Source of the DNA: a virus
Direction: 5' to 3' (one strand)
Length of the DNA stretch: 64,000 nucleotides
Virus record (IMG/VR): IMGVR_UViG_3300030012_001663
Location: 31,397-95,396 of that record
Both the position numbers and the translations under genes were made by a program. Numbering within the stretch: position 1 is the first letter of the stretch; each line of letters opens with the position of its first letter. This document shows, in pieces, positions 1-42,600 of this stretch. The notes beneath the pieces were generated by a model. It ran no database searches. It saw only the letters and a program-made list of their open reading frames with translations, and was not told where the DNA came from.

Positions 1-948
1 ACCTGCTGTACTTGTAAATTCAAGATTTGATCCGTTTAATGCAACATTAGTTATACCTAACCAACTAGGCATTTGTAATGCACGTGATTGAAATCCAGTT
101 ACGTGACCAAATTGATCAAGCTTAAGACCATTATTATTATTATTTGGATCCTGTCCAACAAGTAATTGAGGATCAATTGTATTACCATAACTTAAAGTTA
201 TAGCTGAACCAGCCGAAGTACCTGTAGCAGTAGGTGTACCATGATCAATAGTACCACCTGATACAGTAATTAGATTACCACCTGTTAGTGTTGTACCACC
301 AGCTGCTGTCTCAATTATATTACCATCTGTATCTACAGATAAATTATAAGTTGCTGTACCTGTCTTATTACCTTGACCATAGTCAACAAGCTTTACATTC
401 TTATGAATATCTACTATTTCTGCACCTGCTGTTGTTTTAATTTCAATTACTGGGTTATTACCAGCAGCACCAAGTCTTATACCAGCACCTGAATAATTAT
501 ATACAAATGCAAATCCATCTCCATCATCATCCCAACCAAAACTTGCTTTGAAGTTATTATCTTGTTTAATCAAAAATTCAGGATCACCTCCTGTAACTGA
601 GCTAGGTTTGTTTATAAAGAACCTATCACAGTTATTAAATCTCATTTGATACATACCGTTACTTAGTGGTGGTGATTGAGATAATTGACTATTCTCAATA
701 CTATCTCCACTTGCAGTAAACATAGGGATAGTTCTTTCAGAACCTGAGCCAGATATTTCTCCTACATCAAAGTAGGCTTTTAAATCTTTTAATCTAATGA
801 GTTCATTATGCATCTTAGGAGCCGTGAACATCATATCAACATCTAGCTTAGGTGTCTTACCTAAAACAAGAAAGTCCTGATCTTCACCAGTTTTTGTAAC
901 CTTTTTACGGGTTAACAGACCCATCATGTCTAATAACATATTTCCCAT
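1..948 (-). CDS. Minor structural or fibre-like protein, C-terminus cut by the window edge
   Basis: The frame is open from the ATG at 948 to base 1, giving 316 codons with no stop, so the C-terminus lies outside the window. The N-terminus (MGNMLLDMMGLLTRKK) is followed by a region that becomes rich in Gly, Thr, Ser and Asn, with short beta-type repeats such as TLTGGNLITVSGGTIDHG and a GDDDGDG-like acidic turn (GWDDDGDGFAF). This composition is usual for phage fibre or decoration proteins. The start overlaps the stop of the upstream basic gene as TAATG, so the two are translationally coupled. The first 15 residues resemble the start of the protein at 2248-2853 (both have D-[MV]-[ML]-x-L-L-x-R-x-K), which suggests a shared N-terminal anchoring region. 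The precise role is unknown. Confidence 0.75.
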   Translation of the reverse strand, partial: MGNMLLDMMGLLTRKKVTKTGEDQDFLVLGKTPKLDVDMMFTAPKMHNELIRLKDLKAYFDVGEISGSGSERTIPMFTASGDSIENSQLSQSPPLSNGMYQMRFNNCDRFFINKPSSVTGGDPEFLIKQDNNFKASFGWDDDGDGFAFVYNYSGAGIRLGAAGNNPVIEIKTTAGAEIVDIHKNVKLVDYGQGNKTGTATYNLSVDTDGNIIETAAGGTTLTGGNLITVSGGTIDHGTPTATGTSAGSAITLSYGNTIDPQLLVGQDPNNNNNGLKLDQFGHVTGFQSRALQMPSWLGITNVALNGSNLEFTSTAG

Positions 949-1190
949 TATCTTTTCTTTCCTTTATGTAAACCATGCTTAGCATGTTGTTTACCTTTTT
1001 TAGTTGCTGCTCTTTTCTTTTTATTTGCTGCAGCTAGCTTAGCTCTACCTTTCTTAGTGCTTTTTAGCCTAGATATAGTTTTAGCAGGAGCATATACTTC
1101 TCCTGTCTCAGAACTCTTTTTACCAGATGCGGTTCTCCACTTCTGTTTTGTCCATCTATCTAAGCTCTTTTGTCTAGCTGTTTTAGCCAT
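948..1190 (-). CDS. Small basic protein, resembles C-terminal half of DUF5872-type proteins
   Basis: An 80-residue protein with about one third Lys/Arg and an Ala/Lys tail. The N-terminal part reads SLDRWTKQKWRTASGKKS followed by TGEVYAPAKTI. From memory this matches the second half of DUF5872-type proteins of large eukaryotic viruses and some phages, where a W-T-x-x-K/D-W pattern is followed by a G-E/R-x-Y-x-P motif. The other half (GSKGGRPGQWSARKAQ) is in a separate gene at 1787-1984. The stop overlaps the next start (TAATG). High charge and small size suggest a nucleic-acid-binding or virion-packaged protein, but no function is established. The family match is recalled, not searched. Confidence 0.8.
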   Translation of the reverse strand: MAKTARQKSLDRWTKQKWRTASGKKSSETGEVYAPAKTISRLKSTKKGRAKLAAANKKKRAATKKGKQHAKHGLHKGKKR

Positions 1191-1192
1191 AA

Positions 1193-1327
1193 CTACTCAC
1201 TTTGTGCTGCAGCATGTGAGCCATCACAATTTCCTTCAGGATCTTGTGTGTTTCCACATACGCAGGGATTAATTCCATTATTCATTGCTATGTACATTTG
1301 TATACCTTCGTTTAACCAGTGATTCAT
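1193..1327 (-). CDS. 44-residue CDGSH-like iron-sulfur protein candidate
   Basis: The chosen start (ATG at 1327) gives a 44-residue product that begins just after the holin stop; an upstream in-frame start would overlap the holin gene by about 70 bases. Residues 22-38 read CVCGNTQDPEGNCDGSH. Three Cys (22, 24, 34) and His38 have the order of the four ligands of CDGSH [2Fe-2S] domains (C-x-C...C-D-G-[ST]-H). The gap between the second and third Cys is nine residues, one more than the usual eight, and the Pro is displaced. Residues 3-19 could form a short amphipathic helix. If it binds a cluster it would be a minimal redox or sensor protein; the function is unknown. The gene lies between the holin and basic-protein genes. 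Confidence 0.7.
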   Translation of the reverse strand: MNHWLNEGIQMYIAMNNGINPCVCGNTQDPEGNCDGSHAAAQSE

Positions 1328-1331
1328 AATT

Positions 1332-1787
1332 TTACTTCTTAATAGTTTGAAACTTTTCAAATCCACGTGATCCAAAATAAGCCACGTAAATAGTAACAAG
1401 GAGTGTCTTGAGTAATTCTACCCAACTCTCATCTATATCAAAAGCAATATCAAGTGAGTCTAATACAATATAAAGAGATGTAATAACAGTAAGATATATT
1501 AGTGTCATTGGTCTAGTATTCTTACTTAACCAAGAATCAGATTTCATATCTGAGTCCCAACGCTTGCTTACTTCTTGCATCTCAATCATATCAAGCTCTA
1601 AAAGCTTCATTGCTTTTTCTTTATCTTCTGGTGTTAGTGAGGGCTCATTATCAATTAAACCTTTTACTACACCTAATACACCTGCGTCAGGTAAAACATC
1701 TCCAACTACACCTAATATACTAGGTACTTTATCAGTTAGAAACTTACCAACCTTGGTATCTTTAAATTTTTTCTTAGGTTTTGACAT
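1332..1787 (-). CDS. 3TM-family holin
   Basis: A 151-residue protein that fits the phage '3TMs' holin family (of the kind used for gene-transfer-agent release; Pfam holin of 3TMs, as recalled). Residues 20-45 form a hydrophobic/amphipathic N-terminal helix. Residues 46-93 hold the family-typical stretch LTPEDKEKAMKLLELD followed by KRWDSDMKSDSWLSKNTRP. Two transmembrane segments follow at about 94-114 and 121-140, ending in AYFGSRGFEK. It would permeabilise the inner membrane at the end of infection. It is in a chain of small late-type genes; its ATG touches the stop of the 65-residue gene at 1787. No endolysin gene is adjacent; the cell-wall hydrolase visible here is the 921-residue virion protein. 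Confidence 0.9.
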   Translation of the reverse strand: MSKPKKKFKDTKVGKFLTDKVPSILGVVGDVLPDAGVLGVVKGLIDNEPSLTPEDKEKAMKLLELDMIEMQEVSKRWDSDMKSDSWLSKNTRPMTLIYLTVITSLYIVLDSLDIAFDIDESWVELLKTLLVTIYVAYFGSRGFEKFQTIKK

Positions 1788-1984
1788 TATTTCTTTTTTC
1801 CTCTATAACCTCCACCGGCTGCTTTATATGCTTTTGCAAGCATTTGAGCTTTACGTGCTGACCACTGACCTGGTCTTCCACCTTTGCTACCCGCTTTGAT
1901 TCTATTAAACAATCTTTTACGCATTGTAGGCTTTGTATAATTACCTGATGCGTTTACTGTACTTTTTTTCTTTTTTGCTGGCAT
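1787..1984 (-). CDS. Small basic protein with GSKGGRPGQWSARKAQ motif (DUF5872 N-half-like)
   Basis: A 65-residue protein starting MPAKKKKS at 1984; the longer upstream reading would overlap the neighbouring gene. Residues 20-65 hold RLFNRIKAGSKGGRPGQWSA, then RKAQMLAKAYKAAGGGYRGKKK. This motif (a K-x-G-S-K-G-G-x-P-G-Q-W-S-A-R-K-A-Q core and a GGGY end) is known to me from small proteins of mimiviruses, phycodnaviruses and some phages annotated as DUF5872. There it is followed in the same chain by a second motif, which here is in the gene at 948-1190. It probably binds nucleic acid or is packaged in virions; this is an inference from charge. The stop overlaps the holin start. Confidence 0.85.
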   Translation of the reverse strand: MPAKKKKSTVNASGNYTKPTMRKRLFNRIKAGSKGGRPGQWSARKAQMLAKAYKAAGGGYRGKKK

Positions 1985-2003
1985 AATTATTCTTTTATAA
2001 CAT

Positions 2004-2237
2004 TTACTTGCTATGTCTCTTCTGTACTTTAAAGTTAGCAACTAAGGATGCTCCCTTGTGAGGTACAAACTTTCCAGAGTGCTTCATAAGTCTAAAACCA
2101 GATCCACTTTTCATCCAATGGAATCCTGCTGGAGCTTTTACCCCTTTAGTTCCAGTTGAACCACCTTTTTTATAGTTTACAACGCTTTTAGGCATTGTTC
2201 CTTTTTTCTTTGCTGCTTTTATTTTTTTTGCTGGCAT
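2004..2237 (-). CDS. Small basic protein of unknown function
   Basis: A 77-residue, strongly basic protein (MPAKKIKAAKKKG at the N-terminus) with a central GFHWMKSGSGFRLMKHSG and a C-terminal hydrophobic/basic section FKVQKRHSK. The central section looks like a small beta-hairpin domain flanked by disordered Lys-rich arms. The first four residues (MPAK) match the neighbouring 65-residue gene. Ten bases separate it from the upstream minor structural gene and about 20 from the next gene, so the run is one operon. No enzyme motif is visible. I have a general memory of similar proteins in marine phages but cannot name a family. Confidence 0.75.
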   Translation of the reverse strand: MPAKKIKAAKKKGTMPKSVVNYKKGGSTGTKGVKAPAGFHWMKSGSGFRLMKHSGKFVPHKGASLVANFKVQKRHSK

Positions 2238-2247
2238 ATCTATAATT

Positions 2248-2853
2248 TTATATTGCTTCTGTTCCTAGTGTTCCATCATTAGCTACAGTCAATTTATATA
2301 CTGTACCGTTTGGTGATGATAACCTAACTTCAGTTGCAGGTCCTATTGTAATTTGATGCGTATTGTTTGAAACAGTTACGCCATCTCCCTTTAATGATTT
2401 AAATTGTAAAGTCTCTCCACTCTTTTGAGCAAACACTCCTGAGCCATCACCAACTGATTGACCCCATAGGTTTTCACCAGTATTAGGCTCACCTAAAGTG
2501 TTAATCTCTAAGAAGTCTCCGTTCTCAGCTACACTAAGATTCAGAGATAAAGACTTTAACTTTCTCAAATTTACTGTACAGTCTTCTGTCTCAGGATCAA
2601 TTACTGTATCTTTATAGACACCTGCTGTACTAGTAAGGTTTCCTGTTGGTACATTTACAAATGTGCATACATCTGCAGGTACCTTTAAATCAGAAACCTT
2701 TATAAGCTTAACTGACTTATATGGAATAGGAGAAGCAACACCGGTCATATCAGGCTTCTCATGTATACCAATAGGTATAACATCATTAGACTTAGCCTTC
2801 TTAATCAGCTTACCTCTCTTTAATAAACTTAATACGTCAGTAAGAATATTCAT
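2248..2853 (-). CDS. Minor structural protein candidate
   Basis: A 201-residue protein. I chose the ATG at 2853 because it follows the preceding stop (2855) directly; the longer frame to 2934 would overlap the 83-residue gene by 80 bases. It begins MNILTDVLSLLKRGKL, resembling the start of the protein at 1-948. The middle is a mixed alpha/beta region with a Cys pair (residues ~61 and ~83). The C-terminal third is Gly/Thr/Asn-rich (SLKGDGVTVSNNTHQITIG) and ends in a short beta-repeat (YKLTVANDGTLGTEAI) as in phage decoration or fibre-tip proteins. The role in the virion is inferred from composition and neighbours. Confidence 0.75.
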   Translation of the reverse strand: MNILTDVLSLLKRGKLIKKAKSNDVIPIGIHEKPDMTGVASPIPYKSVKLIKVSDLKVPADVCTFVNVPTGNLTSTAGVYKDTVIDPETEDCTVNLRKLKSLSLNLSVAENGDFLEINTLGEPNTGENLWGQSVGDGSGVFAQKSGETLQFKSLKGDGVTVSNNTHQITIGPATEVRLSSPNGTVYKLTVANDGTLGTEAI

Positions 2854-2854
2854 T

Positions 2855-3106
2855 TTATTTCTTTTTAGATGCTGTCCATCCACCCATTTTATATGCCTGC
2901 ATTCTCTTCTTAGAACCACCGTCACCGTAAACATATCTTTTTGTCTCAGATCCGTTTCTCATTTTTTGTTCCATGTTGTCAGCCATATCCATAGATGCAC
3001 CACCATAAGTCATCTTATTTAAAAGAGACTCACCACCGTTTTTCTTATAGCCCATTGCTTTTAGTTTATTAAACAAAGCTTGAGCGCCTTTCTTTTTTTC
3101 AGCCAT
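2855..3106 (-). CDS. Small basic protein with GG motifs
   Basis: An 83-residue protein from the ATG at 3106 (MAEKKKGAQALFNKL). A TTG three codons upstream is less likely, since it would overlap the 48-residue gene that ends at 3108. It is Lys- and Gly-rich with repeated Gly-Gly sites (KKNGGESLL, TYGGASMDM, GDGGSKKRM, KMGGWTASKKK). Several Met-rich stretches suggest short helices. No enzyme motif is seen. Similar K-x-G-G or D-G-G sites occur in the large structural proteins at 33061-39622, hinting at a shared processing or binding signal. Confidence 0.75.
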   Translation of the reverse strand: MAEKKKGAQALFNKLKAMGYKKNGGESLLNKMTYGGASMDMADNMEQKMRNGSETKRYVYGDGGSKKRMQAYKMGGWTASKKK

Positions 3107-3107
3107 T

Positions 3108-3254
3108 TTATTCAATATTTAATGTTAATGTACATACTAATAAAAACAACCTTGCGGTTGTAAATGCATGCTTCTCATCAGGAAGAAAAAACTCCCATCC
3201 TAGAGCACACCTTTCATGAGGCCAATGAAAGGCTATTTCTAAATCCCAATTCAT
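3108..3254 (-). CDS. 48-residue dwarf protein, hydrophobic C-terminus
   Basis: A 48-residue gene found by reading the apparent gap. The ATG at 3254 overlaps the stop of the 44-residue gene as ATGA, and its TAA at 3110-3108 is one base before the next ATG at 3106. This tight packing on both sides supports it. The product starts MNWDLEIAFHWPHERCALGWEF, continues with an acidic loop, and ends in a hydrophobic strand-like segment (ARLFLLVCTLTLNIE). Its pattern (aromatic/His strand, L-G-[WF], charged loop, hydrophobic terminal strand) resembles two other dwarf proteins here, at 4477-4668 and 10731-10865. The function is unknown. Confidence 0.65.
   Translation of the reverse strand: MNWDLEIAFHWPHERCALGWEFFLPDEKHAFTTARLFLLVCTLTLNIE
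3141..3161 (-). terminator. Possible intrinsic terminator inside a small gene
   Basis: On the minus strand ACAACC-GCAA-GGTTGT forms a 6-bp stem closed by a GCAA (GNRA) tetraloop and is followed at once by TTTTTA. The shape fits a short intrinsic terminator or attenuator. It lies inside the coding sequence of the 48-residue gene, before its stop, so it may instead be a chance feature of the codons. Confidence 0.35.
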
Positions 3255-3385
3255 CTTCCTTGACCTCTATATTTCTTTTTGTAGTTCTTACTAAGCTTAT
3301 TAACTGATGTCTTTGTCTTAGCATGAACTCCTGGTCTCTTTTTCTTAGCGGGCTTAACGTAAGCTTTTAGTACTAATCTAGCCAT
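3251..3385 (-). CDS. 44-residue very basic protein
   Basis: A 44-residue gene too short for usual gene calls. The ATG at 3385 overlaps the stop of the AT-hook-like gene (TAATG) and its TGA overlaps the next start (ATGA). The product (MARLVLKAYVKPAKKKRPGV and then KTKTSVNKLSKNYKKKYRGQGR) is about 40% Lys/Arg with few hydrophobic residues after position 10. It could be a nucleic-acid-binding or scaffold peptide; no family is recognised. The start/stop coupling on both sides is the main evidence that it is translated. Confidence 0.65.
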   Translation of the reverse strand: MARLVLKAYVKPAKKKRPGVHAKTKTSVNKLSKNYKKKYRGQGR

Positions 3386-3633
3386 TACTTTTTCTTTCTT
3401 GGTCTACCTCTACGTTTTTTACCCTTAGCAGCATCTACTACATCACCAGCTTGATCAGCTACTTCTGAGATAGCATCTGCTACATCTTTCATTTCTTCTT
3501 TAACCCTCTTCACTCTTTGCTTAGTTGCTTTTACAACAGCAGTGGCTCTCTCATCAACTGTAGTCTTTGACCAGACCCAGTCCCATGCACTCTTTACAGA
3601 GGATTTAATTTGGTTTAATACTTTTTTAAACAT
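3385..3633 (-). CDS. Small amphipathic protein with C-terminal AT-hook-like motif
   Basis: An 82-residue protein. Residues 1-25 are amphipathic and Trp-rich (SAWDWVWSKTT). Residues 26-68 form a long heptad-like helix with alternating Lys/Arg and Ala/Val (VKATKQRVKRVKEEMKDVAD). The tail KGKKRRGRPRKKK contains the R-G-R-P core of an AT-hook, which inserts in the minor groove of AT-rich DNA, as this genome is. A role in DNA condensation or virion packaging is inferred. It precedes the other small basic genes of this operon, with a TAATG overlap to the 44-residue gene. About 55 bases separate it from the gene before it. Confidence 0.8.
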   Translation of the reverse strand: MFKKVLNQIKSSVKSAWDWVWSKTTVDERATAVVKATKQRVKRVKEEMKDVADAISEVADQAGDVVDAAKGKKRRGRPRKKK

Positions 3634-7515: not shown

Positions 7516-7890
7516 ATGAGTTTTCTTAAAGATAAAGAACTAAGAGGATACCTTGGTGCAGCCACTGTATTCTTATTAGTAATGGGTCTTCTACTCTTCT
7601 TAGCATTTTTTGAAATACCTGATACAAACAATGATATATTCAAAGTTATTGTAGGTATGCTTGTTGGCTCACTATCTGTTGTTATCTATACTTTTATAGG
7701 TAAAAACCCAGAAGAAGTTGAGTCACTTAAAGCTAAGAATGAAGCATTAGAAGATAAAGTCAGTCAGATGGTGATAGAAAAAGATAAATTAGAGCTTTTA
7801 CTCAGAGACCTACAAACAGAGGTTATTGATAAGCTATCTCTTACAGGAGAGCATTTTGCCTTTTCATCACTTGAAGAAGATGAAGAATAG
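7516..7890 (+). CDS. Two-TM protein with cytoplasmic or periplasmic coiled coil
   Basis: A 124-residue protein with two transmembrane segments (about 14-34 and 43-62) joined by a short loop (FFEIPDTNND), then a coiled coil (about 68-105, EEVESLKAKNEALEDKVSQM) and an acidic tail (SSLEEDEE). The hairpin topology with a long coiled coil fits holin-like or lysis-regulating proteins, or a membrane anchor for the envelope proteins that follow. It is first in a six-gene operon and overlaps the next gene by 11 bases. No family is recognised with certainty. Confidence 0.8.
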   Translation: MSFLKDKELRGYLGAATVFLLVMGLLLFLAFFEIPDTNNDIFKVIVGMLVGSLSVVIYTFIGKNPEEVESLKAKNEALEDKVSQMVIEKDKLELLLRDLQTEVIDKLSLTGEHFAFSSLEEDEE

Positions 7891-9792: not shown

Positions 9793-10191
9793 ATGAAAAA
9801 CATTATAACTTTACTACTATTACTACTACCGTTTATTTCTTTTTCACAAGAGTGGGTTGATGATCAATCAATTGATAAAGTATTAAACTCAAAGAGTGCT
9901 TTTGGTGATGATGAGTCTAAGATAATAGTTATAGAATTTTGGGCTAAGTTTAATGAAGCAAATGCTTTTAGTGACTGGTCTAAAATTAATGAAGATTATT
10001 ACAGAGTAGATATTGGTAAAGCACCTAGTGCAAAAAAGAAATATAGAGTAAGAATGGCCCCTACCATAATTATATTTAAAGATGGAGTGGCTGAGGAAAG
10101 CTTCAAGGCAGGTCTAGATTTAGAATGTCCTGTAAGCTTGGAAGAATTGCAAGAAGCAATTAAAGAGGTTAAAACCGCGGGAGCATTTTAA
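9793..10191 (+). CDS. Exported thioredoxin-fold protein without active cysteines
   Basis: A 132-residue protein with a signal peptide (MKNIITLLLLLLPFISFSQ). The thioredoxin fold shows in IIVIEFWAKFNEANAF (where W-C-x-x-C is expected) and in RMAPTIIIFKDG, which carries the cis-proline (P90). At the two catalytic Cys positions the residues are N54 and N57, so the protein cannot do dithiol exchange. The single Cys (about residue 111) lies elsewhere. Such redox-dead folds act as binding or chaperone modules. In this operon it may bind or mask an envelope or redox partner. It lies two bases after the preceding gene. Confidence 0.8.
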   Translation: MKNIITLLLLLLPFISFSQEWVDDQSIDKVLNSKSAFGDDESKIIVIEFWAKFNEANAFSDWSKINEDYYRVDIGKAPSAKKKYRVRMAPTIIIFKDGVAEESFKAGLDLECPVSLEELQEAIKEVKTAGAF

Positions 10192-16610: not shown

Positions 16611-19600
16611 TTATATTTTTAAGGTACACTTAATGTTTTCTAAGAAAGCATCATCACTTATACCAAATTTAAGGTTTTTTCTTTTCTTTAGGAAGTCATC
16701 AAAGCTATTTATATCTTCCTTATCTGCAAGTATTGCTAACCTATCATTGAAAGGACCTATGTTTTCATTCCAATAATTAGTCATCTTCTCAACATCCATT
16801 TCAGATCTTTTAGGTTTAAGCATAGCTTTTAATTTACTTGGAGTTTCTACATCATCTTCAACAGCAGTTCCTGTCTCAAACTCTTCTACTCCCTCTATCT
16901 GTTGCTCTGCTCTTTCAAGTGCTGTTGCTTGTGCTTTTGTAAGTTTAGATACAAACTTAGATATATTAGTATTATTTACTTGTACGTTAACACCATCAAA
17001 TGATATATCCTCTGCACCAGAAAAATAATTAGGATCATTTATTCCTGCAGCTCTTTCAAAGTCTTCTAGATCATTTTCTTTGTTCTTCTCTACTACTGTT
17101 TCAAATATTGTTTTACCAGTAGGTCTAGTAAACTCAACTGTATCAAACATAAACCCAATACCATTTTGACTTGTAGAACCTGTAGAGTTTACAATTAGAT
17201 AATTTGTTTTCTTGTTTACAATATTAATATCTTGTCTATCTCCTGTATCCTCTAGTTCATATAAAACTTTATTAATTCTAAGATACATTGGTGCTATATA
17301 ACCATTAGGAGTAATTTCAAATGCTTGTAGGTCTGAAGCTCTTGCACCCTCTGCAGCAAAATCTATAGTAAGACCTTTGTCATTTATGCTAATAACATTG
17401 CTACCGCTTGGCGGTGTATAAAGAGTTTTTACAAAAGACTGAGAAGAAGAAGACTTTAGGTATCCTTCTACAAACTCTTTAGTTAGTTCTTGTATGCTTT
17501 TACCAAATACATCTATAACTCTATTTGGATCATTTTTCTGAGATAAGAATTCTTTTGCAACTACTTCAGAGTTCTGAATAAATCTATCCATAACAAAAGG
17601 TGTGAGTGCTTCTAATAAAGAGCCTTCTGCAAATTGTAAACCATCTTTTACCATTACATAATGTAATATATGTATAGCATCTTCCTTAGTGTTTACCTCA
17701 CCATAAATTTTAGCAAAACCATTTTGTAGTTTTATTTTTTGATTATCACTTAGTCTAGCAAAAGTATTTGACACAGCTGTATTCAAACCTGTATTGTTAT
17801 TTGCATCTTTAAATGATCTGTTATACACAAAGAAATCTAAGAAGTAATTATCTTCATCTTTATATAACTTCTTTAATCTATCTACTACTACATTTATATT
17901 TTCATCTGTAATACTATTAGGATATATCATTGTGTTAGATAGTGATCCTGATCCTATTTTTGCTTCTGTATTTAGTAATTGATTTCTATAAGCTGTAATA
18001 GTTAAAAAAGATAATAAATCAGTAGATATTTTTCTTATATCATTTTCTCTTAGTTGTTTTGTGTTAAAACCAAGAGTAGCTAACATAACTTTAAAGTCTG
18101 TACTGTGTGTCATGAGGATGTTTGGTAATAATACATCCTTAAATTCTTTGTGTATTTTATAGTTTGTTGCATGGAAACTATCACCCTCAAAAATCTTTCT
18201 GACATCAAAAGGTACAGTCTTACCACCTTTTATTCTGTGTTGCTTGAACTCTTTGTTAGTTAGCCCTAATCCTAATTGACTTGCTGCACTTTCTTTACCA
18301 ACAATATCAGCTAAGTTCTTACCATGACCTTGCATTAAGTTAATAAGTGCAGTTGCATTAATACTGTGATTAGTTATAGTATTTACTTTTTGTAATACTC
18401 TAAGAATACCAACTGTTTGAGATTTTGTAACATCTTTATCATTTAAGGCTTTTAATAAAACACCATCTGTAACTTTAGCTGGCTTAGCTTTTAATTCTCG
18501 TATTCTAGCATTAATATTAAAATCTGATACACCTTCTTCTATTAATGCAACAACTTCAGGATTATTTACAAAATATATTGAAGTCTCAAGTGGTACACCT
18601 AAACTTACCATAGTAGTAACATAACCAAGAGCAGTTTTGTTAAGACCTAGCTTAGATGCTAATCTTTCTTTTGCATTATCAGTCATTGCTGTAATCAACT
18701 CAGATAATATATATTGTATTCTATCTCCTTTTTTATTCTGTCTATTATTCTCTAGTACGTAGTCTACACCAAATGTTTTAAATGTAGAATTATTTATACT
18801 AAAGTGATATTGTGGATCAAGCTTAATACCAAACTCAGCAAATAAACTATAATATAAGTTGGGTTTTACAACAACACCAATAGAGTCTGCACCTTCTTTA
18901 TTGTTTTTGAATGATAAAGTTTTACCAAGTAAACTATTTACATCTGTTTTAACATCTGCTGTTCTCTTAGCAAACTCTGGTGCATCTACTTCTAATGACT
19001 TTCTTATCTCTGTAAGTCTTGTAAGCCCTGTACCTTCATAAGATATAGCTACATTATTTTTACCATCTATATTTCTAGGTGTAGTTACAAAGTCATTACC
19101 AAGTAAAGCAAACTTATAATCTAGATCTTTGTTTGATAAAGCACCCGCATATGGTTCACCATAAGTTTCAACATAGGTATTATACTGTTCTAGTGTAATA
19201 GGCATACCAAGCATCTTGAGTGCTTTAATAGAGTCTAGTTCTAAACCTGATGTTCTTCCTATTGCAGTATTGTCATCATCAAGCTTGATAGTTTCTGATC
19301 CTTTGTTTCTTTTATCTAGCGCTTCTTTATAGATATTCTTACCCCTAGCTTTTATTTTACTATTAACGTATTCTACATAGTCTGCATAACCATTTGTACC
19401 ATACTCAACAAACTCATTACCTTTTTGATAAAACTCTTTAAAGTGTGTATATAGTTTATCAATATCAAAGTCAGCACCTGATATCTCTAATAAGTCTACA
19501 GGAAATACAGCAGTTGAGCCAAGATAAGTTGGTAAGAAATCTATCAACTTAAGATTAATAGCTGAGTGATTATCTTGAGAAGGTATACGTACACCATATG

Positions 19601-22600
19601 CTTTTGCAACAGCGTCTGGCATAGATGCATTTGTATTTTTTATTCCTGTCACTACTTCACTGTGGTGTGCAGGCATTAAAAACTCAGAATATCTTTGTCC
19701 TGTATATTTACCATTACTATCATATTCTTTCAATCCCATTCTTGGTTTATCAAGAACAATAACTCCTTGACCTTCTGATGCTTCTATAAGTCCAGCAAGT
19801 CCGTCCATATCTCTTGATATATCCAACACTGGTTTTTCATTACCAAATTGTTTGTGGTAAACATCTTCTCTAATAATTTCTTGTCTGTCTATATTACCGT
19901 TCTCATCTAAAGACAATACTCTTCTATACACTTTAACACCATAACCTGACATTAAAGCAAGAGATGTTCCTGGTAATTTATCAGCCATTACACTCTTACT
20001 GAAATATGCCATAAACAATTGCTCTGCTTTTGCAATAACATTAGGTGTGTTGAGACCATACTTCATAGAACCATCTTCATTTGTCATAAACTGTTCTATA
20101 ATATTAGAACTAGCTTGTGATGCTTTTAAAGATTCTGTTGCATACTGCAAGAAGTTATATAGATCTAACTGTAAATCAACACCAGGTTGTAATAACTCAT
20201 CTGACTTAACACCATCTAAATTATCAAAGTCAACTAGTAAGTTTCTTTTTTGTATATGACTAAGTAGTATCTTTTGTGAGTTGTTTTTATTGTACTGTTC
20301 TTTAATGTCTTTGACAGTAAACTCAGTACCATTTATAGTAACCTTTGTATTATCTTTTTGCTCTCCTGTAATTAATGTTTTCATCTGTGTAGGAGATGTT
20401 ATCTGCATTTTATTAGATGGATTTACTACCTGTAATCCCATAAAGTCTGTAGATAACTCAGTTACATTATTTTTATCTATTGCAGATGCACTAAATGCTT
20501 GGTCATGAGTCAATACATTCTGCTTTAACATCTTAAGAGCTGAGGTAGGAGCACTGAATATAACAGTTTCATTTGCTCTTTCATACTCTTCCATTTTAAT
20601 CCTCATATTATGAAGCTCTACCTTATTAGGTTTTGGAATAGTATATTCTCCATTTTCATCTTTAAGTGAAGTAAGCTCTGGTGTTAGTGCTACAGCTGAC
20701 ATTTTTATGTATGTACTACCATCAAAGTATACCAGCTTCATAGAGTTCATAACATGCTGGTCAGATACATAACCTCTTGTGTCTTCTGATCCAAAGAATT
20801 GATCTGCTGTCACCTCTTCACCTGATTGTACTTGATCATGTAATTGTGCAAAACCTTTATTGAGTCTACCCATACCAAAGTTAGAATATCTAGATCCTTT
20901 GGTTGTCATATAAACTTGTGCATCTGTTTCTTCTGATAACTTATCATCTGCCTTTCTTTGATACATAGGATCATTAAATGGCAGTACGCCAAAAGAACTA
21001 AGTTTGTGATTAATACCTAACTCAGGTGCAACAAAAGGCACAGTAATATTCTTATGTGCTGCATTTTGTCCTTTACCTCTTTTTACCTGATCTACTGCAT
21101 CTTTAAGAGTTCTACTCTCATCTCCAAGCAACAATTGATTGATTGCGGTAGTATTTAATTTATCATTAAAATATATCTGAGCTAAATTAAATGATGCATC
21201 TGATCTTTTTAAATTTAATTGTTCCATTGCTAAGTCTACGTCAGCATCTAATTTTCCTGACTTGTTTACTAAACCTGTAGCTGCAACTGGAATATCTGAA
21301 CCTAATACTCTAAGCTGAGCTATTGTATCTAAAAATTCATCAAACTCATTCATTAAATTAGTTTGTACATGATTGTACAACTTACCTTTTAGTGTTGTAA
21401 GTTTCTTAACTGCATCTTCAAAAGATAGTTCTCCTTTATTTGCTATCTCTTCTAGTTCTGTTGCTACTTCTTCTGATAGATAACCTCTAGATGTAAATAG
21501 CTTATATGCTCTACCGTTTTCATCTGAGTTATATCCTTCAATTCTATCTTGAGTAGGTTCAACAACTTCTTTTACAATTCTATTATATTCTTGTCTAAGT
21601 ATATCTACAAACTCATCTAGTACTGGTACAGCAATAGTCATATCAGAACCTGTTCCTTCAACAGCTTTGGTTACTGGTAATAGCATCATATCACCTGTAT
21701 TAGATGCTTCAAGCACTCTAATTAAAGATGGTGCAAGCGCAACCTTTTCTCCATTTACCTCTACTGTTTTGTTCTTAGAGTTACTAGTATTATATAGATA
21801 GGTATATGCATTAATAAGATTTACTAAAAACTCTTTGGCTGTTTGTTTTCCATATGTAGTAGAATCTTGTTTAACCAAACCACCGTCTCCAATGATCTGA
21901 CCTGCTTCACTTTGTTCTATACTTGCAACTCTTGAACCAGCTATTCTTAATATAGATATTTGATCTGTCTCAGATAATAAATTAAATGCATCTGATTTTA
22001 GCAAGTAGTTATTAGGATATTTCTCTTTAAGCTCTGCAATAAAATCACCATCATTCATTTGTACAGCCATCTTACTGTGGAATGTTGGTAACTGATGTAA
22101 GTAAACCTGGTTACCATCAGCATTTATATATGTACTAGCACCTACATTCTCATCAAACTGCTCATTTGCTATAGCCATTCTAATAAGTCTAGACTCCATG
22201 CCTTCAACACCTTTGTCAAAAATGTTACCTGACTTATCTTCTTTTAATGTAGCACTACTAACAATATCTCTAAATGTAACAAAGTCTTTAGATGACAATG
22301 GTTCTACATTTTGATATTGTTTTATAAATGTCTTTTGTGCTTTTGTAGGTTCTAGAATAGCTTTGCCTTCATTTGCCACAAGCATGCTGTACTTAATATA
22401 TCCTGTGCTAAGTAGTATACCTGTACTATTGTATAACTTTTCTCTAATAATCTCTGCCTCTTTAGATAAAGCTTTTTCAGAAATAGACTTTCTGCTTCTT
22501 GAAAGTTTACCTATTGCATAGTCAAACGTTTGTGTTGCTTGGCTCTTGCTAGATGCATTTCTTTTAATCTCATTTAGTTTTACATCATAAGCTGCTGACC

Positions 22601-25600
22601 ATATATTTATCTGTGATCTTGCAGCATCTCTTGAAGCAGCATCATATAAATAAGTTTTATTATTAGCCGGGTCTTTCTGTACAAATAGGTAGTTAAACCT
22701 GGAGTTTTGGAAAGACTTAATAACCTGTATCAAGAATGCAGGATTATTAACTTGTACTGGCATTTGTTTATTATCAACAAGCATTTGTACATCTTCTTGA
22801 CTCATACCAGCATCATTAAATAATCTATCAACAAATGCTTTTGTGTGCATATTGTCTTGGCCATAATTATATAATGCAAGTAATATGTCTTCTGGTGTAT
22901 TAAGATTCTTCACTGCTTTTAATGCACCATTATATACTCTATCTACATCTACTGGAACAATTAATCTTGCCCCTTCTTTTGTTACTTCACCTCCTACACC
23001 AATAGTTTGATCAACTATAAATTCATTACCAAATATATCTGTGTCTTCTACAGTAATAGTACCTATGTATTGTTTAATTTGTGTAGGTATATTAGAAGCA
23101 CCACCAATCAAACTAGCATCTTTATCCCACTCACTTACATCACGTAGCCCTAAGTTTTCTTCAATAACTTCATTTATATCTGCCTTCTTATCATACTGTA
23201 AGTCATAAAACTCTAATTGTTTTCTCACAGCTTGTATAATAGGGAATGAGCCAGGAGACTCTTCAAACATTAATGCTGTATTTATTTCTACAAGTTGGTC
23301 ATACAATTCATCAGATAATTCATTATATCTAGTTTGTTCTGGATCATAAAGCTCATAGTATTCATCATACATTTGATCTTCAACAGCCTGTAAAGTCATT
23401 TTAGGATTCTTTTCTTTTATTTGTAAGAATCTTGCCGCCATACTGCTGACTAGGAAAGTAGATATATTAGGATCAAGATATTCAAAATCTACAGTTCTTT
23501 CTCCTGCTATTTCTTTTATAGGTAAAAGTTTATATGCATCCAGAGTAACACCCTGATTAATCAACTCATCTGTATAAAGGTTATCTGTAGTACCTCTAGA
23601 TCTAAACTTACCTGCATCAATTGATTCATACAAGCTTTGTAGTTCATTTTTAGAATACTTACCAAATACAGATTTTATCCATGCAATAAATCTGTTAAAC
23701 AAAGATTTAATAAATGATGCTGTCTGAGTATCTTTTGGATTCTTTTTAAATAACTCAAACTGATCTGCCATATACTCTTCAAAGAACTCTTGCTCTAATC
23801 TCTTACGTGACATAGAACCATAGAGATCTGCAGAGTTTTTAAACTTCTGTATTTCTGTTTCAAAGTTCTTACCTTCTGATCTTAGTTTTGCTCTAAGTTC
23901 TTTTTCTGCTAAAGCTAAGTATTGTTTCTGCTCTTCTGGTGATAGTAACATTCTAAATACTGCATGGAAAGCTTCATGGTATCTAAACCCATGATCACCA
24001 ACGTATATAGTTCCGTTGATGTCTAAACCTCCTGCAAGAGAATCAAGAGCTAAAACAAATTTACCAACAGTGACTCCGTTTTCTTTTAGTCTGTTACCTA
24101 CTTCATTAATATCTTTTATAGTAATAAAGTTAGGTAGATTGTTTTCTGCCCATGACAAGAATGAATCAATCTTTTCAGTTTCTACTTCTGCAAACTCTGC
24201 AGGTAGTATTTTGTATGCACTAGAATTATTTAATTTTTTTCTAGCATTATCCACTTCTTTTTGTAAGCTTTGGTACTCTGTATTTTCATCAAGTGCTTTC
24301 TTTCTAGGTACACCGTCTTCTTTTGCCTGCTCATATATAGCTTTCTTAAGAGCATTGGCCTGTGCTTGTAGTTTATTAAACTCTTCTATCTGCTCTTGTC
24401 TTTCAGATACTTGTTCTGACTTAGCCGCTATTTCATCAAGCTTACCTATGTTAAGAGTTTCTTCCTTCTTAGTAGTCTCTTCTTTAACAACCTTTGTACT
24501 TATGATCTTGTCTTTATCAGCCTGTGTAGAGTCAACAGAAAAATGTAATTTTCTTTTTGGTTGTCTAAACTGTATAGTAGTATTAGTTTGATCTAATATC
24601 TCATCTACCGTAGCTGTTTCTGATATAGGCTCCTTAAAGCTTTCAGCACTAAGTGTATTATTTGGATTAACTTTATTGTATTCTGTAATTAAACTTGCAA
24701 GAACATCTGTTGCACCTGTCTCACCAATTGCACCATCTATAAGTTTTTGTATAGCATTTGCTTTGATCTCAACCTTTTTACCACCCATCATGTCTAATGT
24801 AATAGACCCATAAGGTGTAACCTGTACAGCTATTTGTGTACCTGCTTTACCAGCTAGATAGTAATCTGCCTTAATTTCTTTATTCCAATCTGTATTATAA
24901 GAATTAGATTTTACTTTACCTTTTTTATCTACATTTGATTTAGCTGTATCTAATGCTCTTTGTATAATTGTTTTAACAAAGTACTCTTGTATATCTTCTT
25001 TTGGATTTAGATTAAGTGGTGCTAGTTTAATAGTACCATCTGGTCTCTTCATCACTGCAGTGTAACCAGTTCTTAATGCTATCTTATATAAGTTATTATC
25101 CTTAAGATCTTTAACAACCTTATCATACAATGCTTGTGCTGCGTCAGAACCTTTTTCCAAACTACTCTCAAATGTTACAACTTGTTTGCCATTTACAGTT
25201 CTTCTAATTAATACAAACTTATTACCATCATAGGTATTGTTTTCTATTTCATTTACACTAACAGCTGGACCATTGTAATCAAAGCTTTCTCCTTGTATCT
25301 TTATATTAAGACCAAGATCTTTTAGTTCTGATATAGATACTGATGATTTACCATCTGCAAATAATTTATCAAATATTCTTACAACACTTCTAGAAGAGTT
25401 AAACTCACTTAAGATGTGGTTTCTATCTGCAAAGCCTTCAAACATATACTCTAAAGAAGACAAAGGATTATCATTGATGCTAAGTCTCTTGTTATCTTGA
25501 TTTACAAACAAGTATTGTCTATTAGGCATATACGCAACTGGTTGTCCTTCATAGGTTAGAGTAATAGTATACTTCTCATTTACTTTCTTTATAAATGGAT

Positions 25601-28600
25601 TCTCTAGTTTATCACCTATCTTCCAGCCTTTCTCTGGGACACTAACTGCAGGATTCTGTCCTATAGTTATTTCTAGATCATTGATATCTATTACATCAAT
25701 AAGATCTCTAAATCTTTTCTCAGCATCTTCTTTTGACTCACCGTCATTTCTATGAGCATATATACCAGTTAGTTCTCCTGGTCTTACTTTGCTATAGTTA
25801 GCTTTATTTTCAATAATCTTTTCTCTAAAGTTTACTTTGTCTTTAGTGTAGAGTTTAGCAAAGCCTACTTCTTGTACTAAAATGCTATCATCTCTCTTAG
25901 CATTAAAAGGTAGTAATGATATCTTGTTACCATCTACAAGACTTGTTGGTGATCCTAATATATAGAATCCTTGCCCTACAGAATTATAAACTACATCTCC
26001 TTCTTTTAGTTCTACACCATCAAAGACATATGTAGAAGTATCAGAGCCTTGTTTCATCAATGTCTTCCAATCAGCATGTGCTTTAGTCTGGCTTGTATAG
26101 ACACCAATGCTATTTAAATTTGCTTTTGTAAACATATAACCAGGCAATGACTTACCAAAGTTATCTGTAATTCTATAAGTTTTTTCTTTCTTACCGTTTA
26201 CTTCTGTAGTAACCTCTAGTATATTAATACCGGGTCCTTTTTGTACCCACTTTCTTGTTGGACTTTGTACTGTATCTAAACCTTCTTGACTCAAGTCTTG
26301 CTCTACTACATCTGCAATATTAACTGCACCTTTTGCTAAAATAGTTCTTACACCAACTTTACTAGAGTTTTGTGTTAACCATTCACCAAACTTGCTTTCA
26401 TCTACAGCTTCTTCTGTTGGTAAAGTTTCCATCCACATATTTCTAAGCTCTTGTAATGCATAGAATGCTTTTCTTGTAGACGCTAGATTTAACCACTCAG
26501 TTTCACTTATAGGCTGCTCACCAGTATTCAGGGTGTTAACTTTATACTTATCATATAACTTAGTTAAAGAAGACTCAAGACTACCTTGTATCTCATCCTT
26601 TTTTATTGGTGGAAGTTTTGATTCTTGTGCATCAATATTTTCAAAGGTTTGGGTGTCTTGAATTTCAGCTGCTTCCACATCAGGTTCAGCATTTTCTTCT
26701 TGAACATCTTCTTCTGTTTGAGCTTGCTGCTTGTATACTGATATGGCGTCCTGGATTTTTGCATACTTATCTGGATTTGTTTCTTCTGTAACTTGACCAG
26801 CTTCATCTTCAAAGTATTTTAATACAGATGCATCACCTGTAGTTAAGAAGTGCATTGCTGTTTGAGGATCAAGTACAACACCTAATTTATTCAGTTGGTT
26901 TAATAATGTATTCTTTTCTACATCATTAACAGATGCTTTAATAATTTTTCTGAATGTCTTTCTGCTATTCTTAAATATGTTAGCCATTATAGGCTCTATT
27001 CTTTCTGCTAGTTTATCTAGATTATCTGGATCTCTTAATATCTCAATTGCTTTGTCATAAGCTCTTGTTCTTTCTTTAAGAGTACCATAATCAAGAAGTA
27101 ATCTTAATGCCCTATCAACAGCTTCAGTATTTTTAAATGTACCTTTTTCTTCTGCTAATACATTAATATAATCTAAAAATGCTTTTCTTACTTTAACTAT
27201 ATTTTTTTTGCTTCTGCTAAACCTATCACCTTTTTTTGTTTGGTTCTCAGGTGCTGTAATTACATCATAGTAGTTCTGTAAAGCTTTAACTTTTTTCTTT
27301 TTGTTAGCTATATCTGTTCTAAAGTTACCTTTTGTATCTTTAAGAGTTTGTATTTCTTGCTCTAGTAAACTTATTTCTTTTTGTATTGTAGGTGCATCAG
27401 CAAGTACTTGTATATCATTAGCAGCACCTTCTGTAGCAAATATAGGTTCTGTTGCTAATTCATTATAAATACTAGTAGATCTTTCTAAAGCTCTTTGGAA
27501 ACCATCTTCAGTAAATAAATTCAAAAATCTAGCATGCTCATATGCTCTCCACTTAATCAATTCAAGAGTGTGCTCACGTGTACCTTTCTTAAACTTTTCT
27601 GGATTATATTTATTTTGATATTTATTTTTGTGGTTTCTATATCTTTTCTCTTGCTTCTCTATTCTATTGATAAGATTATTTAGTCTTTCTCTACGTTTAC
27701 CCGGTGTTTCTTCTTTAGCTCCTTCAGGGAAAGCTTCTATAAGTTCCTCATCAGATAACTGAGCAAGATCTCTTAATGCATCTGTGTAAAAATGAGTTCT
27801 ACCATTATCAAATAATGTCATAGAGTGTTGGAACTGTGCAAAATCTTTTGCGTCAAAGAAACCAAGAGGATCTCCTTCATAGTTGTATACATCCATTTCT
27901 TTGCTGGTATCATGCTGTACTGCAAAGTTTAATTTGTCTGGATTAAACTGACCATCAGGACTATCTAGCATTTCATTATAACCTTTGTTATACTGTTCTA
28001 CTAGTTTCTCTATGTATTCAGTCTTTTGTTTTTGGTATTCCTGAAACTGTGCTTTGTTTACAAAACGGTTATACATATTAGGCATACCCTGAAATAAAAT
28101 TCTTTGAGGTCCTTGTACTAATCCACCCATTAAGAAACCATGCATAAATGTTTCAAAACCTCTTGCTGACATTTGACTATCTACAGCTGAAGCAAACGCA
28201 TGATCCATTGCTTGATGATGTCCTGCAGATGGATGTTCTAGTATTTGAGAATAAAAGTCTTTCGTACCAACAGCAACTGCTTCTTGATAAACTTCTTGAA
28301 AACCTTCTGCAAAGTTAGCTGCAAAGTATCTTATAGCACCATGAGCACCTGCTCTAGCAGTACCACCTACTGTCCAAGACTTAATTCTTTTCATAGAAGG
28401 TAGACCAAGCCACCCTTCTCCTACATCTTCAAAAACATCTCTAGATGCTTTACCTACTGCATCTCTTAATGGTTTAGTTCTTAGTATCCTTCTACCATAG
28501 TTAGTAAGTTGCTCATTAAATATTCTACCTAATGAACCACCTCTACCACTTAATGCTTTTTGTAATACAAATTTATTTGTAAGCCATATAAATGGAGCAT

Positions 28601-39622: not shown

Positions 39623-42600
39623 TATCTGTATGACAACTGTAATTTAGTATTGTGTAATCTTAATAACATTTTTCTTCTCTCAGATCTGTTTCTTCTTAGT
39701 AATACTTTGTTATAGTAATGTCTAAGTTTTTTTCTTTGCGTCTCAGCTTTGTTATAATCTAAGTTATTTGCATTAAGATCTTTTATATATCCGTTTAACC
39801 TTGTCACAAATATTGGTTGCTCAAAGTTGCTAAACTCTCCTCTATCTCTTGTAATATCCCAAAACTGATTAAATCTATACTTCTGTTCCTCCTTAGAGTA
39901 AAGAATATCTATATCATTAGCATTGATAATAGGATACTGTAAAGCATCTATAGGTTGTTCTTTAGGTGTAATATTTAGTTTTAATAAACCTGATACCTGC
40001 TCACTATTGTATAATATAGCTTCATCAAAATTAAAATCTAAGTCATGCCATCTATCATCATTACATGCATCATGGTCCTTACCTTTGTATACATAAGACT
40101 CTAAATGATATTCAACACTCCTAATAGTATTTACAGCTTGACCTGTTTGTTGTATCAATTCTATCTCCCAAGGATAATCAACACCATAAAAGTTAGAATA
40201 TAAATCACATCTATAGTTATGTCTCCATAATCCTGATTCTACATTACTTGGAGTAGTTGTTTCTAATCCAAAGTAGTTACACATCTTTGGAGTTGGGTTT
40301 ATGTAAGTACTACTACCAACTAAGAATGTATCAGGACAAGTTCCTGACTCAGTTGTTGTTCCTGATGGGAATGGAGAAGGTGGACATTCACATTCTACCT
40401 TTCTACATATAGGTGGGTTTTCATTATCACATGTTCCATTTGGTAATACATACTCTCCACCAACACCATTTGGATAAACTAAAGTATATCCTGGAGGACA
40501 TTCACATTCATAGTCTGTACCACAAGCTGCACTTGTTACAGCATTAGCAACAGCACTTGGAGAATTAGGTCCAGTTGTTTGATTAGCTGCTATTGTAAAT
40601 TGATTAGCTGAAACATTACAAGTAACAGCATCTAAAATACCCTGACCACCAGCTGGAGGAGTTGGATTTGTTGGATCACAAAATACTCCTATTACTTCAT
40701 ATCCTGCTTGATTCTGATATTGACATCCCACTGGATTACCACCTGGTCCAGCAGTTGCCGGGCCACATATAGTATTATTACCATCAGTCATTAAAATTAA
40801 AACATTTCTAAAACTTGGTAGTGCTGATCTATCACCTAACTGTGAAGTAGCTTTATTAGATAATATATTTGCACCACCATTTAACCCAGCACATACGTTT
40901 GTTCCTCCAGTAGAACCTGCTGCATAATATGTTTGAACTTGTGCCGGAGTTACAGTATTACTCATACTAAATCCGTTAGGATTCATTGAACTTACTTGAG
41001 TAGCATTCCATCTTGTAAATCCTATTTGTATATCACCTGAAGCCATTTGAGCTGATATATTGGGATCATTTAAAAAAGCTTGTACAAAAGCTCTTTGTGC
41101 ATCAATTCTAAATGGTGGACCAGGAGGATCATCTGTACTACCTGAAACATCCATAGCAATAACAATATCAACTAAACAATTTTCAGGTCCACCTGTTATT
41201 GTTGCAGCTACCTCATCTACATTAACTGGAGCCGGTTCAAAAATGTTTTGTCCTCTTTCACATAGTCCTGTTGTAGAATTATAAACATAACCATCTGGAC
41301 ATATAGGTGTGTCTGACTCAGCTGTTTTTGTTGTAAGGAAATGATTTATACTGTGTAAATGCATTTCTGGATGCCAGTCATGGAATGATATCCATGATTT
41401 AATTTTAGGATCATATGATACTGTCCAAGAACAATCTTCAAAGTATGTAGGATCTCCTATCTCTACATCTATAACTATACCTGCAGGTGTAGTAAACTTT
41501 ACTTGAGATTTTTCATAGTCAAAAGACATTTCACCAGCAATCTTCTTTTTAACTCTGTAGTCTTTCTTACAGAAGTATACTATGTCATCATTAGCGTCAT
41601 ATATAGTTTGACAACCAACACCTGCAACTGGGTTGTCTGCTAATGGATGACCTTCTAACTCTGGTAAATCTTTTATTAATTGACATGGTAAGTATTTGTT
41701 AAACCACCATTTCATTCCTGCATCAGCTATATTAACAAGACCTCTACCAGTATATTGGAATATTTTACCTTGTTGTTGAGACATAAAGAATAAACCTGTT
41801 GGTGTATTTACAATACTTCTCAAACTTTCTACAGATCCATATTCATGTGATACATCTGAATTAGTTATATTTTGTGGTTCTCTATTAAACAAACCTCCGT
41901 CACCAACTGTTACTTTATTTCCAAGGTCTGTTTGTAATGTATCAACACCTTGGAACATTTGTGGAGACTGATAAGGGAAGAATATAACAGCACCTGTCTT
42001 ATTCATAGGTTTAATAGCGCTTACAGTGCTTTTAAAGTCCTTATAATTATTTGGTAAGAATACCCTCCAGAAATCTTTTTTAGCTTCTTGTTGAGCTCTT
42101 AATGAATATATTAATCTTTTTGGATAATAGTCATGACATGCATCAGCAATAAGCGGATCATAATCTCTAGGTTGAATATTACCTGCGCTAATAAGATTCA
42201 TCTGAAATCTACTATTACTCAGAGAGTAGTCATATCTATAGAAGTTATCTTCTTTAATTATGTCTGCATGTAATAATCCATTTATATCATTGTCATTATA
42301 TATATCAAATACTCTTTCCTCTGATTTTGCACCATAATCTCTATACGCTAAGTTTATTTCTGATTCAACAAAGAAGTCAGATATACCATTAATATGCGTA
42401 TAGATATATGCATACTTCATTACAAATGTAGGACCATCACTGCCTCCAAATAAATCACTTAGAGCACTAGTAAAGTTTCTTCTATCCAAGTAGTATAAAT
42501 CATCAGGAAAAGCTTGATCAGTAGAACTTAAACCTAAACTTATAATCTCTTGTGCTAACTGACCTGTATCATACCTTTCAGATGATAACCAGTATCTTGG

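What the first reader, a model, noticed from the sequence alone, without database searches (positions are those of the whole stretch)
1193..1327. 44-residue CDGSH-like mini iron-sulfur protein
C22-x-C24 ... C34-D-G-S-H38 carries all four ligand types of CDGSH clusters in only 44 residues, with a nine-residue rather than eight-residue inter-Cys gap. A phage-encoded stand-alone CDGSH protein next to a holin is unexpected and could sense redox state or timing.
Basis: partly seen in the sequence, partly recalled or inferred. Interest (0 to 1): 0.7.

Follow-up and report, generated by a model that had tools for sequence, protein, structure and literature searches.

The report
Phage mini-CDGSH metal-binding peptide family
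A 44-residue protein encoded next to the holin gene of a probably marine bacterial virus belongs to a large, unannotated family of tiny virus proteins that keep the four metal-holding residues of CDGSH iron-sulfur proteins but little else of that fold, and that repeatedly sit beside cell-lysis genes; whether they hold iron-sulfur or zinc, and what they do, is untested.

Summary
The minus-strand ORF 1193-1327 reads C22-x-C24 ... C34-D-G-S-H38 with nine residues between C24 and C34; chance expectation in the window is about 2e-5. It is not an oddity. IMG/VR holds a large family of stand-alone peptides, mostly 22-45 aa, with the signature C-x-C-G-x-T-x4-G-x-C-D-G-[ST]-H. When each ligand was left free in turn, all 120 genuine matches per scan kept it. 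Pfam, PHROGs and NCBIfam do not recognise the window protein. A family profile finds solved CDGSH proteins, aligned with a one-residue insertion, and one phage protein family carries either the 8- or the 9-residue version as its tail. The variant is virus-enriched: 0 of 394 other Bacteroidota genomes have it, whereas 17 of 41 have the canonical motif. It lies within 2.2 kb of a holin of the window's family in 10 of 11 contig clusters (about 1 expected). Tested CISD features that fail: spacing, P11, Pfam cut-off. Best reading: a minimal, cap-less CDGSH-type module, probably [2Fe-2S], made with the lysis genes. Metal and function are unproven.

The parts
1193..1327 (-). 44-aa mini-CDGSH protein; ligand candidates C22, C24, C34, H38; T27, G32, D35, G36 also conserved in the family
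1332..1787 (-). holin-family protein (151 aa) immediately upstream; the family recurs beside mini-CDGSH genes
   Evidence: phrog_3427 'holin' E 3.9e-18; linkage
948..1190 (-). small basic protein (80 aa, phrog_14910) immediately downstream; a homologue lies two genes downstream of the mini-CDGSH gene in L041
3689..4003 (-). 104-aa protein with N-terminal membrane-type segment and coiled-coil-like tail, weak spanin-like matches; possible further lysis gene, same strand
   Evidence: phrog_2658 E 1.8e-8, phrog_13 Rz-like spanin E 0.0027
7516..7890 (+). 124-aa membrane and coiled-coil protein; homologues (TMCC) sit directly upstream of the mini-CDGSH gene in L041 and in the largest lineage

Best explanation
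The ORF is a real late phage gene for a minimal CDGSH-type metal-binding module. The peptide wraps a single metal site with C22, C24, C34 and H38 (the 3-Cys/1-His set of CDGSH proteins), with T27, D35, G36 and S37 in their usual structural places and a loop one residue longer that carries Gly where CDGSH proteins have Pro. The most likely cofactor is a labile [2Fe-2S] cluster. Most relatives are only 22-30 aa, so the conserved unit is this 17-residue loop without the beta-cap of classical CDGSH dimers; it must act as an autonomous module, by self-association or by docking on a partner. It is probably made together with the holin and endolysin, and I think its most likely role is accessory to the late or lysis phase: binding or handing over iron-sulfur, or responding to redox change, near the lysis proteins at the membrane. 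Shown by tools: gene reality, ligand invariance, relation of the motif to CDGSH, virus enrichment, linkage to holin genes. Inferred: metal identity, assembly state, co-expression and function. I give about 0.85 to metal binding, 0.6 to [2Fe-2S], and 0.25-0.3 to a direct role in lysis.
For: Unbiased ligand tests in IMG/VR: with His free 120 H and one spurious hit; third Cys free 120/120 C; first Cys free 120 C and one spurious; second Cys free 120/120 C. The invariant residues are kept across varied synonymous codons; Ser uses both TCN and AGY. The family profile finds CDGSH crystal structures (3tbm E 0.0074, then 3s2q, 3tbn, 7p0p, 6avj, 4oo7 weakly; 6 of 7 hits); 3tbm and 3tbn align over the loop with a one-residue insertion. 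WYL_2/phrog_1086 proteins carry an 8-gap tail (L254, L298; Pfam zf-CDGSH 33.2 bits on L254, above the cut-off) or a 9-gap tail (L086, L116), aligned ligand for ligand. AlphaFold is most confident over the motif (blocks 21-30 and 31-40 average 77 and 73 against 50-53 elsewhere). Holin within 2.2 kb in 10 of 11 contig clusters, 1.07 expected; three lineages have the holin gene immediately upstream of the motif gene, others one to a few genes away.
Against: No spectroscopic or metal evidence exists. The 8-residue spacing and P11, universal in characterised CDGSH domains (PMC3174974), are absent, as are the N-strand and P motif in most relatives; that paper concludes the module must be paired and needs a beta-sandwich. 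Foldseek finds no PDB match to the model. 11 of 34 contigs have no detected holin of this family, and one lineage (G727) has it 33 kb away. Fused copies are attached to proteins with no evident link to lysis (glutaredoxin, XkdF-type protease, WYL_2).
Confidence: 0.62

Rival explanations
1. A zinc-binding mini-module: the same C3H residues hold one Zn2+ as a small structural adaptor, comparable in size and in modular use to the SEC-C motif of SecA, and the resemblance to CDGSH reflects descent with a change of metal.
For: Very short autonomous peptides and terminal appendages on unrelated proteins are typical of zinc micro-domains; the loop is changed exactly where classical CDGSH loops are universal. 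The C-x-C-G start recalls SEC-C (from memory, no tool match).
Against: Thr at position 6 and D-G-[ST] before His are kept as in [2Fe-2S] CDGSH domains; a bare zinc site would not need them. Pfam returned no SEC-C match for any member tested.
Confidence: 0.22
2. A [2Fe-2S] or iron-handling peptide of general use in infection (redox buffering, cluster supply to phage or host enzymes) that lies near lysis genes only because small late genes accumulate there.
For: Fusions with glutaredoxin (9-gap) and 2OG-Fe(II) oxygenase (8-gap) point to redox and iron chemistry. Lineages without a nearby holin exist. The window phage also encodes ribonucleotide reductase-like ORFs and a secreted thioredoxin-like protein (read by eye, not scanned).
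Against: The holin linkage is far above chance and holds in several different gene orders; stand-alone 9-gap genes are near holin or endolysin in 64 of 101 loci, against 2 of 32 fused 9-gap and 0 of 108 8-gap loci.
Confidence: 0.35
3. The peptide is a virion component, a metal-holding tail or bridge in the particle, like other phage structural proteins with Fe-S clusters.
For: 9-gap tails at the C-terminus of XkdF-type head maturation protease fusions (L106, L180); the Fe-S cluster of the roseophage R4C tail hub (PMC10276861); small basic ORFs next door in the window.
Against: Most stand-alone copies sit in lysis neighbourhoods, not among head or tail genes; the R4C site is a different four-Cys fold.
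Confidence: 0.12
4. Chance ORF or decayed fragment without function.
For: Only 44 aa and no database family match.
Against: Expectation 1.9e-5, ligand invariance, tight operon spacing, exactly one copy in each of 33 phage contigs.
Confidence: 0.02

Closest known systems
CDGSH iron-sulfur domains (CISD / NEET; Pfam PF09360 zf-CDGSH; types 1-7 of Lin et al. 2011, PMC3174974)
   Same: C-x-C ... C-D-G-[ST]-H ligand set; Ser/Thr three residues after the second Cys; Asp-Gly-Ser before His; best PDB profile hits are CDGSH proteins
   Different: Nine instead of eight residues between second and third Cys; Pro11 replaced by Gly; Phi1 and Phi12 positions are Pro and Asn in the window; 22-45 aa with no room for N-strand, P motif or beta-sandwich in most members; below the Pfam cut-off
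Canonical 8-gap mini-CDGSH proteins in viral contigs (e.g. L262, 24 aa; L249, 39 aa)
   Same: Stand-alone virus-contig peptides of 24-50 aa with the same ligands; also appended to other proteins
   Different: Keep Pro11 and 8-residue spacing, pass the Pfam cut-off (two tested), and show no linkage to the window's holin family or the M15 endolysin family (0 of 108)
Paenibacillus 25-26 aa chromosomal peptide MGKCACGNTQNTEGNCDGSHAKKDSK (L205 and others)
   Same: Same 9-gap signature and size; 8 of 13 sampled genomes in one genus have it
   Different: Cellular: in L205 near ribosomal protein S6, single-stranded DNA-binding and MscS-like genes, not in a lysis cassette
Phage tail-tip/hub proteins with Fe-S clusters (lambda gpL relatives, roseophage R4C; PMC10276861)
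   Same: Phage proteins with Fe-S clusters
   Different: Four-Cys site inside a large structural protein; no sequence relation seen

Membership tests
CDGSH iron-sulfur domain (CISD/NEET, PF09360) | Ligands C2, C4, C13, H17 (3 Cys, 1 His) | tested here: met
   Present; invariant in ligand-free scans
CDGSH iron-sulfur domain (CISD/NEET, PF09360) | (S/T)7, D14, G15, (S/T/A)16 | tested here: met
   T27, D35, G36, S37 in the window; position 16 is 94 S and 16 T of 110 distinct motifs. Thr at position 7 and Asp-Gly were required by the search patterns, so their conservation in relatives is not an independent test
CDGSH iron-sulfur domain (CISD/NEET, PF09360) | Eight residues between C4 and C13, with P11 | tested here: not met
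   Nine residues; Gly at the proline position in 105 of 110 motifs
CDGSH iron-sulfur domain (CISD/NEET, PF09360) | Hydrophobic Phi1 and Phi12 that form the dimer interface (PMC3174974) | tested here: not met
   Window has P21 and N33; some relatives have Y, F, L or W at Phi12
CDGSH iron-sulfur domain (CISD/NEET, PF09360) | N-strand, P motif and beta-sandwich dimerisation module | tested here: inconclusive
   No extended strand in the monomer model, low confidence outside the motif; most relatives have only a few residues outside the motif; dimers could not be modelled
CDGSH iron-sulfur domain (CISD/NEET, PF09360) | Pfam gathering score of PF09360 | tested here: not met
   No match for the window protein; two relatives at 15.2-15.5 bits against 29.5
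CDGSH iron-sulfur domain (CISD/NEET, PF09360) | Binds a [2Fe-2S] cluster | not testable with these tools
   Needs purified protein
SEC-C zinc-binding motif (PF02810, considered) | C-x-C-x8-C-[HC] pattern / Pfam match | tested here: not met
   Spacing differs and no Pfam SEC-C match; the pattern itself is from memory

The most novel reading that the evidence does not exclude
A virus-enriched class of the smallest natural [2Fe-2S] proteins (22-45 aa, a cap-less CDGSH loop with one extra residue) that works in the lysis programme of marine phages, for example as a redox- or iron-responsive partner of the holin or endolysin.
Probability: 0.2. Interest if true: 0.88.

Novelty: new variant of a known kind. 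Interest (0 to 1): 0.6.

Why it matters
CDGSH domains are held to need pairing and a beta-sandwich to carry their cluster (PMC3174974). A large natural family that keeps only the loop, in peptides short enough to synthesise, gives a direct test of how little protein a 3Cys-1His [2Fe-2S] site needs. Its recurrence beside holin genes gives a concrete, testable candidate for a metal- or redox-dependent step in phage lysis. The stand-alone members tested are invisible to Pfam at its cut-off, and the window protein also to PHROGs and NCBIfam, so the family is probably missed in most virus annotations.

Tried and rejected
tblastn against isolate phages gave only weak hits; the Rhizobium match is antisense to an annotated gene, the gut-phage match is a 38.7% E 0.7 hit in an unannotated record, and two typical short mini-CDGSH queries matched nothing. 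Short queries limit that search, so absence from cultured phages is not shown. Fold comparison with the PDB gave nothing. A neighbour first labelled a lipoprotein (LIPO) is probably an alternative reading frame of the M15 endolysin gene, judged by eye, so it was merged with M15 when clusters were counted. The Paenibacillus locus was tested for fixed synteny: only L205, L206 and L215 share the flanks used. The held paper library has no report of CDGSH proteins in phages that my searches found. The two non-ligand hits of the free scans are spurious: L230 is in an Ala/Met/Cys-rich frame, L248 reads AHCGGTFACPGLCDGWH.

Full report
WHAT IS THERE. The minus-strand ORF 1193-1327 encodes MNHWLNEGIQMYIAMNNGINPCVCGNTQDPEGNCDGSHAAAQSE. 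Under the window's base composition the motif is expected 1.9e-5 times. The gene lies 4 bases after a holin gene (phrog_3427, E 3.9e-18) and 2 bases before the next ORF. The window is bases 31397-95396 of a 95,396-base IMG/VR virus record.

IT BELONGS TO A LARGE FAMILY. A first locus search gave three relatives. Nearly all matches are genes, most of them stand-alone peptides of 22-45 aa (73 of 134 shorter than 30 aa). Among 110 distinct 17-mers, Gly follows the second Cys in 107 and precedes x-C-D-G in 105, neither of which that first pattern demanded; position 16 is Ser (94) or Thr (16).

THE LIGANDS ARE INVARIANT. Because the first pattern required all ligands, I ran four scans, each leaving one ligand free while fixing the other conserved residues. 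His free: 120 His, one spurious. Third Cys free: 120 of 120 Cys. First Cys free: 120 Cys, one spurious. Second Cys free: 120 of 120 Cys. Codons at the invariant positions vary freely, and Ser appears as both TCN and AGY, which points to selection on the protein.

RELATION TO CDGSH PROTEINS. The window protein matches no Pfam, PHROG or NCBIfam family (the only listed hits are sub-threshold and unrelated). Two relatives reach 15 bits with zf-CDGSH, half its cut-off. A profile of 40 relatives (A3) against all PDB sequences gives seven hits at E up to 10, six of them CDGSH proteins led by 3tbm (E 0.0074); 3tbm and 3tbn align over the loop with one residue inserted. A natural exchange supports equivalence: WYL_2/phrog_1086 proteins about 50% identical carry at the same place either an 8-gap tail recognised by Pfam (L254, L298) or a 9-gap tail (L086, L116), and their ligands align one for one. 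Lin et al. (PMC3174974) list C2, C4, S/T7, P11, C13, D14, G15, S/T/A16 and H17 as universal and argue that pairing and a beta-sandwich are obligatory. The window has eight of these nine, lacks P11, and has one extra residue in the loop before it. Hence it works like a CDGSH site in all residues that touch the cluster, but it does not meet the family definition.

DISTRIBUTION. The 9-gap pattern is absent from 394 other Bacteroidota and 298 other Bacillota genomes sampled (each tally counts only the centre genome), whereas the canonical 8-gap pattern is in 17 of 41 Bacteroidota genomes. Cellular exceptions are a Paenibacillus group and a few Flavobacteriales or Bacillales draft genomes. In L205 the gene lies among core chromosomal genes, with no sign of a prophage. 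Canonical 8-gap mini-CDGSH proteins also occur in viral contigs, and Pfam does recognise those tested. The virus set comes from metagenomes; habitat and host were not established here, and 'marine' and 'Flavobacteriia' are inferences from the gene sets.

LINKAGE TO LYSIS GENES. Stand-alone 9-gap genes have a holin of the window's family or an M15 endolysin within 4 kb in 64 of 101 loci; fused 9-gap genes in 2 of 32; 8-gap genes in 0 of 108. The 101 loci reduce to 31 nucleotide clusters, of which 15 show a holin or endolysin nearby. On whole contigs, 33 records have exactly one motif each, and the holin profile finds a match in 23 of 34 records. Taking one contig per cluster, 10 of 11 clusters with a strong holin match have it within 2.2 kb, against 1.07 expected from contig lengths. 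Gene orders differ: holin-motif directly (window; L085; L099), holin-one or two genes-motif (L096, L041), and membrane protein-motif-small membrane protein-M15 endolysin-holin (the lineage of 36 loci). Caveats: the holin profile was built from holins found near motif genes, other holin families would be missed, and small late genes in general gather around lysis genes; the 8-gap loci come from other phages and are only a loose control.

MODULAR USE. The 9-gap motif is also found fused to glutaredoxin (L199), at the C-terminus of XkdF-type protease proteins (L106, L180) and of WYL_2 proteins; the 8-gap motif is fused to 2OG-Fe(II) oxygenase (L256, L257) and WYL_2. This suggests an autonomous module that can be attached to several proteins.

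STRUCTURE. AlphaFold gives mean pLDDT 62; the motif blocks average 77 and 73, the flanks near 50. No PDB fold match was found. The model is too small and too weak to decide between metals.

MECHANISM. Shown: a real gene, ligand invariance, relation of the loop to CDGSH, virus enrichment, holin linkage. Inferred: the peptide binds a metal through C22, C24, C34 and H38, most likely [2Fe-2S]; it acts as a self-associating or docking module; it is made with the lysis genes and serves the late phase. Rivals are zinc binding, a general iron or redox role without a lysis function, and a virion component.

Noticed in passing
L199:513-812 (minus): Fusion of the 9-gap mini-CDGSH motif with a glutaredoxin domain (PF00462 E 5e-9), in a viral contig.
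   Followed up: partly
L256:5136-5978, L316, L328, L257:8635-9366: Canonical 8-gap CDGSH motif at the N-terminus of 2OG-Fe(II) oxygenase-like proteins of 243-280 aa in viral contigs.
   Followed up: partly
L249, L262, L274, L308, L323 and others: Stand-alone canonical 8-gap mini-CDGSH proteins of 24-50 aa in viral contigs; the two tested pass the Pfam zf-CDGSH cut-off.
   Followed up: partly
L205-L223: 25-26 aa 9-gap CDGSH-like peptides (e.g. MGKCACGNTQNTEGNCDGSHAKKDSK) conserved in chromosomes of a Paenibacillus group; function unknown.
   Followed up: partly
window 948-3633 (minus): A run of small, very Lys/Arg-rich ORFs (44-86 aa) next to the holin and mini-CDGSH genes; several match PHROGs of unknown function.
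   Followed up: no
window 9793-10191 (+): Secreted thioredoxin-like protein; a similar-looking protein neighbours the motif gene in L185 (cluster of 8 loci).
   Followed up: no
window 39622-45714 (-), 49818-52064 (-); L376:10816-14328; L375:14056-15213: Several large phage proteins contain D-x-[ST]-G-S type stretches resembling von Willebrand A (MIDAS) motifs.
   Followed up: no
window 16611-29891 (-): A single ORF of 4426 aa and a neighbouring ORF of 1913 aa, very large for a 95-kb phage contig; with the structural-protein PHROG hits this recalls crAss-like phages (not tested).
   Followed up: no
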